A DNA stretch of 64,000 nucleotides, from assembly GCF_007859205.1 (NCBI RefSeq), contig NZ_VOHP01000003.1, positions 62,001 through 126,000 of the forward strand. Direction: 5' to 3'. Position 1 is the stretch's first letter. Every line of letters begins with the position of its first letter. The notes under the pieces were generated by a model. That model saw nothing but the letters and a program-made list of their open reading frames with translations, was not told the DNA's origin and searched no databases. The position numbers and the translations under genes were made by a program. Below, in pieces: positions 12,997 to 15,117 of the stretch. This DNA is from Streptococcus sp. sy004. GTDB taxonomy: Bacteria; Bacillota; Bacilli; Lactobacillales; Streptococcaceae.

Positions 12997-13016
12997 AAGA
13001 GAACAACTGTTCTCTT
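12997..13016 (-). terminator. Terminator of the ComS-like peptide gene
   Basis: AAGAGAAC and GTTCTCTT pair around AACT, and the minus strand continues with T-rich sequence (TTTTTTGTTT). It lies 12 bases after the peptide stop. Confidence 0.7.
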
Positions 13017-13028
13017 ATAAATTTTCTA

Positions 13029-13088
13029 CTAACCAGTAATAAGAAGCCAAATATTGAAAACAAGTTGGAGTACTAGTAGTTTTTTCAT
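13029..13088 (-). CDS. ComS-like pheromone precursor peptide
   Basis: A 60-base gene encoding MKKLLVLQLVFNIWLLITG (19 residues) with an AAAGGA ribosome site eight bases before the ATG. A short basic start and an all-hydrophobic body are what ComS-type SigX-inducing peptide precursors look like. It follows a ComR-like regulator on the same strand and has its own promoter made of a GACA-N4-TGTC palindrome, a T-rich spacer and TATAAT. The C-terminus (about FNIWLLITG) would be the active pheromone. It has neither the double-tryptophan WW ending of mutans, bovis and pyogenic ComS, nor the salivarius LPYFAGCL, nor the suis WGTWVEE type. Assignment rests on context and size, not homology. Confidence 0.65.
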   Translation of the reverse strand: MKKLLVLQLVFNIWLLITG

Positions 13089-13121
13089 ATCCGTCATCCT
13101 TTCTCATTTTATGATAATGTT

Positions 13122-13163
13122 ATTATAATAGAAAAGTAAAAGTAAAAACAGGACATGCATGTC
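13122..13163 (-). promoter_or_regulatory. ComR-box-like promoter of the peptide gene
   Basis: The minus strand holds the perfect 12-base palindrome GACATGCATGTC (13152-13163) with GT before and CTGT after it, then a T-rich spacer of 24 bases, then TATAAT (13122-13127). From memory, ComR-regulated promoters (comS, sigX) have a GACA-N4-TGTC dyad, a T tract and a -10 without a -35, which fits. The palindrome overlaps the regulator's stop codon. Confidence 0.7.
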
Positions 13164-14076
13164 ACTTTACATTTCCCAAATGTGCTAAATCTATGTCTTT
13201 TTCTTTGGTTAAATTAGTCCAAAGAATGTCATCTCCTATGTCTTTTGCCAATAAAATTGCCATATCATAAGCTTGTTGAGCTTTCTGTTTATCTCGAGAT
13301 TGATAAACGGCATACTTAGCCCTAAAACACAAGGTAACTGGTCGATAAACCTGCTGCAAGGTTTGCTGAATAATCTCATCCATTCGCTCAACCGTCTGCA
13401 ACATCTTTTCATAATCTTGACTCACAAGATAAGAACCAGCAAATGCACTTAAAACTCCTAATAAGGCTACATTATAAAATTCATTTCCTTGTATTGCCTG
13501 TTTTCTCACTTTTTCAAAACAAATTCCAAACTTTTCTGATTCATAAGTGACATCTTGGCATTGCACTGCATAATATTGTAGCAACAGTAAATCATTCAAT
13601 ACATAGACATCTTTAATTAGAACCTGTTCAAAATAGTCAGCAAATAGAGAATCTGCACGCTCACCCTCAGAATGAAGTCGCCAATCTAACAAGCGTTCAA
13701 TCAAATCTAGGGTCAACAGCTCTTCATCGGGTAATAAATCAAAATACTCTTGATAGATTTCCTCGATGATTCGGTGTTTTTCTGCAATTCGCTCGGTATT
13801 ACCATAGGAGCTACTCTTAAACAAGAGATATTTTTTCTCAAAGTATGATTCTGGTATATGAATGCTATTGTCACCCAAAATATCGGTTACATACATCCCT
13901 AATGTTTCAGCAATATATTCCAATTTCAGCAAGGTCGGCAAGGACTTACCTTGTTCAATCCGCATAAGCTGTCTGACGGTCAATTCTGTTTCTGTCCCAC
14001 AAAACTGCTCACGAGTTAGCCCTCTTTTCTTACGCTCTGCACGAATTTTATTGCCAATGACTTCCTTTTTGTCCAT
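13162..14076 (-). CDS. ComR-like (Rgg/PlcR-type) peptide-responsive regulator
   Basis: A 304-residue transcription factor. Residues about 5-65 are an HTH_3 DNA-binding domain (IGNKIRAERKKRGLTREQFC; LTVRQLMRIEQGKSLPTL; IAETLGMYVTDIL); the rest is helical with the TPR-like pattern of peptide-binding RRNPP regulators. The LSxRQLxRIExGxSxPTL signature is that of ComR and its paralogues ScuR/SarF, more than of classical Rgg. The start is the ATG at 14076 with GAGGG six bases upstream; an ATG at 14094 lacks a good ribosome site. The tiny peptide gene with a ComR-box-like promoter directly downstream suggests a complete ComRS-type circuit. Whether it controls sigX or another target such as bacteriocin genes cannot be seen here. 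Confidence 0.8.
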   Translation of the reverse strand: MDKKEVIGNKIRAERKKRGLTREQFCGTETELTVRQLMRIEQGKSLPTLLKLEYIAETLGMYVTDILGDNSIHIPESYFEKKYLLFKSSSYGNTERIAEKHRIIEEIYQEYFDLLPDEELLTLDLIERLLDWRLHSEGERADSLFADYFEQVLIKDVYVLNDLLLLQYYAVQCQDVTYESEKFGICFEKVRKQAIQGNEFYNVALLGVLSAFAGSYLVSQDYEKMLQTVERMDEIIQQTLQQVYRPVTLCFRAKYAVYQSRDKQKAQQAYDMAILLAKDIGDDILWTNLTKEKDIDLAHLGNVK

Positions 14077-14209
14077 CGTTTCCCTCTTATGCATATTTAT
14101 ATCCTAACAACCTAAGTTTAACATGTTTTTTCATAAAATGAAAGCGTAAGCAATAATTAGAAAAACTTTTCTTTGATTTTGAAAACAATTTCAACAAAAG
14201 ATAAATAAA

Positions 14210-14241: not shown

Positions 14242-15117
14242 TCAATCATGAAATTGTTCCCATAAACAATCGGATAACTGGGCAAAGTTCTCAATCGCCA
14301 AGGCTTCACCTCGTAAATTTGGGGCTAGTTGGACTTGTTCAAGAGCTTTCTCCAATTTTACTTTGACATCGTCTGATTTTCCAAAATGATTTGTCAAATT
14401 ATTCCAGAGGGTCTTACGTCTATGAACAAATGAAGCTTTAGCCACACGGAAGAAGAAATCTTCGTCCTTAACTGCGACTAAGGGCTCTTTGCGACGAACC
14501 ATTTTCAAAATGGCAGAATCAACATTTGGAGCAGGCACAAAGACTGTACGCGGCACAATAAAGGCGACCTTGGCAGTCATGTAATACTGAACAGCAATAG
14601 ACAAGCTACCGTAAGCCTTAGTTTTAGGTTGAGCAGAGATGCGGTCTGCCACTTCCTTTTGCATCATCACCACAAACTCACTAAATGGAATTTTGCTCTC
14701 AATCAAATGCATGAGAATAGGAGTGGTGATATAATAGGGTAAATTAGCAACTATTTTTATAGGCAAATCAGGATTTTTGAAACCCTGGATTCGCTTATGC
14801 AAATCAGCCTGCAAAATATCCTCATTGATAACCTGAACATTATCAAAATCAGCCAGTGTTTCAGCTAAAATCGGAATTAAACGGTCATCAATTTCAAAGG
14901 CCATGACTTCGGCTGCCTGTTCTGCCAAAAACTCGGTCAAAGCCCCAATACCAGGGCCAATTTCAATGACATTGACGGTCTTATCAATCTCTGCTGTTGC
15001 GACAATCTTCTGTAAAATATTAGTATCAGTCAAGAAATTTTGACCAAAGGACTTCTTAAATGTAAACCCATGACGTTCTAAAACCGCCTTGGTCACTGAA
15101 TAATCTGCTATTCTCAT
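14242..15117 (-). CDS. ksgA: 16S rRNA dimethyladenosine transferase KsgA
   Basis: Dimethylates two adjacent adenosines in the 3' helix of 16S rRNA. The 291-residue product has the SAM site [16 protein letters not shown] (about 50-65), the catalytic [14 protein letters not shown] (about 126-139), and the C-terminal [12 protein letters not shown]. It overlaps the end of rnmV by four bases; rnmV and ksgA are paired in most firmicutes, here downstream of tatD. Confidence 0.96.

What the first reader, a model, noticed from the sequence alone, without database searches (positions are those of the whole stretch)
13029..14076. ComRS-type quorum-sensing locus with a pheromone unlike the XIP types I recall
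A ComR-like regulator is followed by a 19-residue hydrophobic peptide gene (MKKLLVLQLVFNIWLLITG), and the peptide promoter has the ComRS signature: GACA-N4-TGTC dyad, T-rich spacer, TATAAT, no -35. Seen: ORF, ribosome site, dyad, order. Known (ComRS of mutans, pyogenic, bovis, salivarius, suis groups): comS lies just after comR, and SigX-inducing peptides end in WW, LPYFAGCL or WGTWVEE forms. This peptide ends IWLLITG with a single W, so it may be a new pheromone type or a ScuR/SarF-like circuit for something other than competence.
Basis: partly seen in the sequence, partly recalled or inferred. Interest (0 to 1): 0.88.

Follow-up and report, generated by a model that had tools for sequence, protein, structure and literature searches.

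The report
Competence pheromone circuit with unusual receptor
A small streptococcus appears to switch on DNA uptake with a chemical signal and receptor pair whose receptor belongs to a branch known so far mainly for controlling toxins against other bacteria, and whose signal peptide is of a type not seen in the papers searched.

Summary
A ComR-type regulator (13165-14076, minus strand) is followed by a 19-codon ORF (13029-13088) under a promoter with GACATGCATGTC, T tract and TATAAT at +36, the only such site in the window (0 in 100 shuffles). It is the genome's only ComR_TPR gene found. Both sigX copies carry the same box at the same spacing; comEA/EC, dprA and a probable comFA carry CIN boxes. 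So this is most likely the species' ComRS competence switch. Yet the regulator does not group with competence ComRs of types I-III but with ScuR/SarF/ComR2 (support 96/93). S. cuniculipharyngis repeats the arrangement (regulator 72% identical, peptide ending WLIING, boxed sigX, no other ComR). The shared peptide end W-L-[LI]-I-x-G resembles the Trp...Gly consensus of synthetic ScuR activators (PMC6703854); native ScuR ligands are reported unknown (PMC12998947). It is a new variant of a known kind: a ComRS with a ScuR-branch receptor and a predicted XIP with one tryptophan. Peptide activity, processing and sigX control are inferred from anatomy; nothing was measured.

The parts
13165..14076 (-). 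comR: HTH + ComR_TPR receptor/regulator, 304 aa (stop codon at 13162-13164; alternative upstream ATG at 14094)
   Evidence: PF18710 E 3.7e-53; nearest solved structures are ComR of S. vestibularis, S. thermophilus and S. suis; AF2 model pLDDT 86.7, top 10 Foldseek matches all ComR chains
13152..13163 (-). ComR box, GACATGCATGTC dyad, overlapping the comR stop codon
13122..13127 (-). -10 element TATAAT, 36 nt from dyad start, after a T-rich spacer
   Evidence: same spacing at both sigX genes and behind 35 of 84 ComR-like ORFs examined
13029..13088 (-). comS: 19-aa precursor MKKLLVLQLVFNIWLLITG; predicted pheromone = C-terminal 7-9 residues
   Evidence: ortholog MKKQLLLQLFLLLWLIING in S. cuniculipharyngis; 11 of 19 residues shared, including the Trp and the final Gly
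12997..13016 (-). intrinsic terminator of comS
   Evidence: hairpin -10.1 kcal/mol with its flanks, z -1.7
14242..15117 (-). rsmA (ksgA), conserved upstream neighbour of comR in both species; not part of the circuit
   Evidence: PF00398; same order in L132

Best explanation
This is the ComRS competence quorum-sensing switch of this species. ComS (19 aa) is made, exported and trimmed to a C-terminal pheromone of about 7-9 residues (around NIWLLITG), taken up again, and bound by ComR through its TPR pocket, with K100 taking the peptide's carboxylate. ComR then frees its HTH domain, dimerises and binds GACA-N4-TGTC boxes at comS (positive feedback) and at two sigX genes, and SigX turns on the CIN-box DNA-uptake genes. 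Shown here by sequence: the genes, the boxes, their spacing, the single ComR, the CIN boxes, and conservation in a sister species. Inferred: peptide processing and activity, binding, and transcription. The receptor groups with the ScuR/SarF/ComR2 branch rather than with the ComRs of types I-III, so here a ScuR-branch receptor does the competence job.
For: Only 1 ComR_TPR gene in the genome (99.96% complete), and only 1 in S. cuniculipharyngis. Zero-mismatch box-to-minus-10 promoters at comS, sigX1 (C6:268) and sigX2 (C9:629): 3 of the 5 exact pattern hits in the genome; the other 2 lack a TATA-like -10. In S. cuniculipharyngis 4 of 4 exact hits are T-rich and include comS and sigX. CIN boxes before comEA/EC (ComEC frame 745 aa), dprA and a probable comFA; in the sister species before dprA, cinA and ssbB. 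DNA-contact residues R35, R39 and pocket residue K100 are kept, as are K87, Y91, R96, E118, D147 and Q151 (roles from passages of PMC5131891). Branch: 96/91 with 82 rows, 96/93 with 66 rows; joining it to type I, II or III ComRs alone is rejected (AU p 1e-4, 4e-93, 7e-7).
Against: ScuR of S. salivarius recognises similar boxes but does not activate comX (PMC6703854, sections 7-9 read), so branch membership alone would argue against competence. At one mismatch the box pattern is hardly more frequent than its reversed control (36 vs 33 in the genome, 42 vs 32 in the sister). Joining the pair to the whole type I/sobrinus-side sister group is rejected only mildly (p 0.027), and the branch next to ScuR/SarF itself has only 89/65 support. 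Several type I pocket residues differ (T90S, R92G, F171V, Y174Q, N208G, E282G), though most of these are shared with ScuR/SarF/ComR2. The peptide's Trp is at -6, not -5 as in the ScuR screen. The assembly has 10 contigs, so a second receptor in a gap is not excluded. No expression, peptide or transformation data.
Confidence: 0.83

Rival explanations
1. A ScuR/SarF-like circuit: the regulator mainly controls bacteriocins or an ABC transporter through this peptide, and sigX is controlled by something else.
For: The receptor groups with ScuR/SarF; ScuR does not activate comX in S. salivarius (PMC6703854). In S. cuniculipharyngis two further boxes precede a 31-aa Trp/Arg-rich ORF and an ABC ATPase.
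Against: Both sigX promoters here have the box at the comS spacing with a perfect dyad. No SptAB-like genes adjoin comR (neighbours RsmA, Asp23, CsbD). No clear bacteriocin gene was seen behind an exact box in the own genome.
Confidence: 0.08
2. Dual use (compatible with the best explanation): the same ComR drives competence and, through variant boxes, predation genes, as ComR does in S. salivarius.
For: Extra boxes in S. cuniculipharyngis at a putative leaderless bacteriocin; one extra near-match in the own genome after nusG with 35-nt spacing.
Against: The own-genome fourth site also reads as a terminator of the nusG operon (inverted repeat plus T run), and its 72-aa ORF is of unknown function (no Pfam match; matches in 34 other genomes of 279 searched).
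Confidence: 0.35
3. The 19-codon ORF is not the pheromone gene; the dyad promoter makes an RNA or drives nothing.
For: Short ORFs occur by chance; the ORF is hydrophobic and short, and 8 of its codons differ in amino acid from the sister's.
Against: The ORF, its place, ribosome site, Trp and final Gly are kept in a species whose regulator is only 72% identical, with 5 silent codon changes among 13 changed codons, counting the stop; other peptides behind such boxes in the branch start 28-33 nt after the -10, with one exception at 135 nt.
Confidence: 0.05

Closest known systems
ComRS of Streptococcus, types I (salivarius), II (mutans, bovis, pyogenic), III (suis)
   Same: ComR_TPR receptor, small ORF just downstream, GACA-N4-TGTC box with T tract and -10 at comS and sigX, CIN-box late genes.
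   Different: Receptor is in another branch; predicted XIP has one Trp and ends LLITG, not WW, LPYFAGCL-like or WxxW; no CIN box before comR (no TACGAATA or its reverse anywhere in the window).
ScuR/SarF of S. salivarius (PMC6703854, PMC12998947)
   Same: Same branch (96/93); shares the E200, G208, Q174 and G282 states; synthetic ScuR activators share a single Trp followed by hydrophobic residues and a final Gly.
   Different: ScuR/SarF have no adjacent peptide gene, flank sptAB and do not activate comX; here comS is adjacent, sptAB is absent and sigX carries the box. Trp-Gly spacing is one residue longer.
ComR2 of S. ferus and relatives in S. macacae, S. danieliae, S. devriesei, S. orisasini
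   Same: Same branch, 46-49% identical; some have box-driven single-Trp peptides (S. macacae ...VVVTWMIFGSY).
   Different: S. ferus also has a main type II comR with a WW peptide (named in PMC13361665; box-driven ORF ...GLSWWGL). The peptide ORF behind the S. ferus comR2 box stops early (13 codons). That the S. ferus gene found here is the one the review calls comR2 is inferred.
Rgg/SHP systems
   Same: RRNPP receptor plus short hydrophobic peptide.
   Different: Fold match clearly weaker (Rgg2 TM about 0.46 vs about 0.7 for ComR); no D/E...GG SHP motif; box differs.

Membership tests
ComRS competence system | Receptor with HTH and ComR_TPR domain | tested here: met
   PF18710 E 3.7e-53 over 1-222 of 222; Foldseek ranks 1-10 all ComR
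ComRS competence system | Small ORF next to comR under a GACA-N4-TGTC, T-tract, -10 promoter | tested here: met
ComRS competence system | Same box at sigX | tested here: met
   2 of 2 sigX copies in the genome, identical box, TATACT at +36; also sigX of S. cuniculipharyngis. sigX named by orthology to boxed sigma-like ORFs; NCBIfam gives only a sub-threshold sigma-70 hit
ComRS competence system | SigX (CIN-box) late competence genes present | tested here: met
   comEA/EC, dprA, probable comFA among 8 distinct pattern places in the own genome; 11 rows vs 5 in the control. comG and coiA were not looked for
ComRS competence system | Peptide activates ComR and competence | not testable with these tools
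   needs synthetic peptide and reporters
ComRS type I, II or III | Receptor groups with ComRs of that type | tested here: not met
   AU p 1e-4 (I), 4e-93 (II), 7e-7 (III) for the pair joined to each
ComRS type I, II or III | XIP motif of that type | tested here: not met
   ends NIWLLITG; types as given in passages of PMC5131902
ScuR/SarF system | Receptor in the ScuR/SarF branch | tested here: met
   96/91 and 96/93. ScuR/SarF identified as the 82%-identical pair in a salivarius-type genome, G183
ScuR/SarF system | Linked sptAB ABC transporter genes, no peptide gene nearby | tested here: not met
   neighbours are rsmA, Asp23 and CsbD genes; peptide gene adjacent
ScuR/SarF system | Does not activate comX/sigX | not testable with these tools
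   sequence points the other way (box at both sigX genes)
Rgg/SHP | SHP with D/E and terminal GG; Rgg fold | tested here: not met
   peptide lacks both; Rgg2 TM about 0.46. The motif is partly recalled, partly from the table in PMC13361665

The most novel reading that the evidence does not exclude
The ScuR/SarF/ComR2 branch is not a set of orphan predation regulators but an independent pheromone-receptor line. Its natural signals are single-tryptophan peptides (W-L-[LI]-I-x-G here; WMIFGSY, WFHIFG, WVVIFIP, WLYIVH in relatives), and in at least one lineage it has taken over, or kept, the master control of competence. This would be a fourth ComRS type and the first natural ligand family for ScuR-like receptors.
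Probability: 0.4. Interest if true: 0.65.

Novelty: new variant of a known kind. Interest (0 to 1): 0.52.

Why it matters
The native ligands of ScuR/SarF are stated as unknown in a 2026 paper (PMC12998947, passages read). Here receptors of that branch sit beside their own box-driven peptide genes, which gives concrete peptides to test. It also suggests that the branch is compatible with sigX control, so the split between 'competence ComR' and 'predation ScuR' would not be fixed by descent. It would add a pherotype, and perhaps a simple inducer, for otherwise uncharacterised streptococci.

Tried and rejected
CIN-box scan with a 14-20 nt gap from the T tract gave 3 hits against 6 in the control: the wrong spacing. 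It was repeated with 9-14 nt after seeing the comEA promoters of both species. The box pattern at 1 mismatch is useless (little or no excess over control), so only exact hits were used. A MnmG tree to place the species tied the genome firmly to S. cuniculipharyngis (100/100) but left the deeper position open, so I cannot say whether a type I-III comR was lost or never present. The fourth possible box in the own genome (C3:15687) was considered as a target and left open, because it also reads as a terminator. Considered and rejected: Rgg/SHP; phage origin (no phage record matched). ComR-like genes do occur on 6 plasmid records, all under 60% identical. A first residue table used a wrong numbering offset and was redone. 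Rows dropped before counts: ORFs under 255 aa (2 of 84, leaving 82 rows) and 16 long or odd rows, among them 3 branch members (L039_0, L041_0, L115_4). Literature: Rued and Federle 2023 on S. ferus is not held, so ComR2 is cited through the review. A search for S. cuniculipharyngis found 0 papers.

Full report
What is there. On the minus strand at 13165-14076 lies a 304-residue protein with an HTH and a ComR_TPR domain (E 3.7e-53). Its nearest solved structures are the ComR proteins of S. vestibularis, S. thermophilus and S. suis. An AlphaFold2 model from nine sequences (pLDDT 86.7) matches ten ComR chains first and Rgg2, PlcR and PrgX much more weakly. Directly behind it is a 19-codon ORF, MKKLLVLQLVFNIWLLITG (13029-13088), 33 nt after the -10 of a promoter with dyad GACATGCATGTC, a T-rich spacer and TATAAT. 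The complete promoter pattern is found once in the window and in none of 100 shuffles. A hairpin with a T run closes the unit.

It is most likely the genome's ComRS. The genome (1.216 Mb, 10 contigs, 99.96% complete) gave one ComR_TPR gene. The exact box-plus-minus-10 pattern gives 5 places: comS, the two sigX genes at contig ends C6 and C9, and two places without a TATA-like -10. Both sigX promoters read GACATCGATGTCCTGTTTTATAAAAGAAATTTGACTTATACT, with the -10 at +36 exactly as at comS. The late regulon is there in part: TACGAATA boxes stand before comEA/EC, dprA and a 432-residue helicase that I name ComFA from recall, its NCBIfam hits being PriA-like and below cut-off; the ComEC frame is open over 745 residues. 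Of 84 ComR-like ORFs collected, 38 have a downstream dyad with a TATA-like -10 at 34-37 nt, 35 of them at 36, so the spacing at this locus is the family's spacing.

A sister species repeats it. Of 284 genomes of the genus searched, 233 had a match to the regulator. The best after the own genome is S. cuniculipharyngis (72%; named). There the order rsmA-comR-comS is the same (RsmA), comS reads MKKQLLLQLFLLLWLIING, it is again the only ComR_TPR gene, and sigX and comS carry the box. The two comS genes share 11 of 19 residues, with 4 silent codon changes and the stop changed TAG/TAA. Trp, the following Leu, the Ile and the final Gly are kept.

The receptor's branch. In trees of 82 and of 66 ComR-like proteins, the pair falls with the ScuR/SarF pair of a salivarius-type genome, with ScuR-like genes beside ABC transporters, and with ComR2-type genes of S. 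ferus, S. macacae, S. danieliae, S. devriesei and S. orisasini (96/91; 96/93). Placing the pair with type I, II or III ComRs alone is rejected; placing it with the whole type I/sobrinus-side sister group is rejected only mildly (p 0.027). I take the ScuR/SarF pair as such because the two genes are 82% identical, as stated in PMC6703854, and one is followed by a gene that reads, by eye, as an ABC ATPase. Their identity to the ComR of that genome is 39% here, 42% in the paper. Within the branch, the placement next to ScuR/SarF itself is weak (89/65). The trees are unrooted, so takeover of competence by a ScuR-like receptor and retention of an ancestral competence role cannot be told apart.

Mechanism by residue. 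In S. thermophilus numbering, the DNA-reading R35 and R39, the carboxylate-binding K100, K87, Y91, R96, E118, D147 and Q151 are kept; R51 is K, T90 is S, position 117 is D and E146 is A. F171/Y174 are V/Q, D200 is E, N208 is G and E282 is G, mostly the states seen in ScuR, SarF and ComR2 (roles from passages of PMC5131891, and PMC8605241). So the basic activation path can work, while the peptide pocket is of the ScuR kind.

The peptide. A random screen for ScuR activators gave the consensus LPFWLVLG: Trp at -5, Gly at -1, with Trp essential and Gly important (PMC6703854 section 7; section 8). Here Trp is at -6 and Gly at -1. A synthetic peptide with Trp and Gly shifted by one was a weaker activator in that paper, so the resemblance is suggestive, not proof. 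Other box-driven peptides in or near the branch also have a single Trp: S. macacae ...VTWMIFGSY, G165 ...VHWFHIFG, S. danieliae ...VTWVVIFIP, Streptococcus sp. 121 ...MLWLYIVH. Of the 19 rows listed, five show such a peptide (these four and the window's own); the S. cuniculipharyngis row was missed there because its -10 is TACAAT. Four rows have another kind: two Trp (L118_2), no Trp (L116_0), an early stop (L035_1) or an unlike sequence (L034_0). In the remaining nine none was recognised. No paper held contains the two C-terminal strings.

Status. Against types I-III, the receptor's descent and the peptide motif fail. Against ComRS as such, every feature that could be tested is met. Against the ScuR/SarF system, descent is met but its gene context is not. 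I therefore file it as a ComRS of a new variant, working like ComRS, with a ScuR-branch receptor. All steps from peptide export to transcription are inferred.

Noticed in passing
L158:1373-1468 (-), L158:1908-2114 (-), L158:651-1235 (-) (S. cuniculipharyngis, G029:C14): Two further ComR-type boxes behind a stand-alone 68-aa ComR-like HTH gene, a 31-aa Trp/Arg-rich ORF and an ABC ATPase: looks like a ComR-driven leaderless bacteriocin locus with a receptor lacking its TPR domain.
   Followed up: partly
L010:1501-1787 (own genome C3:15687): GACACGGATGTC box with TATACT at +35 after nusG, before a 72-aa hydrophobic ORF with matches in 34 other genomes of 279 searched; the dyad may instead be the nusG terminator.
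   Followed up: partly
L061 / L035 (S. ferus comR2 locus): The peptide ORF behind the ComR2 box ends after 13 codons, just where the S. macacae peptide has its Trp; possibly a decayed pheromone gene.
   Followed up: no
G000, contigs C6 and C9: Two sigX copies (91% identical) sit at contig ends beside tRNA-like and, on C6, 5S-like sequence (by eye), as near rRNA operons.
   Followed up: no
plasmids NZ_LC229233.1, NZ_CP118047.1, AP024279.1 and others: ComR-like regulators (26-34% identical in the rows shown) occur on six Streptococcus plasmid records.
   Followed up: no
G000 (whole genome): The genome is only 1.216 Mb at 99.96% completeness, small for a streptococcus; S. cuniculipharyngis is about 1.5 Mb.
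   Followed up: no
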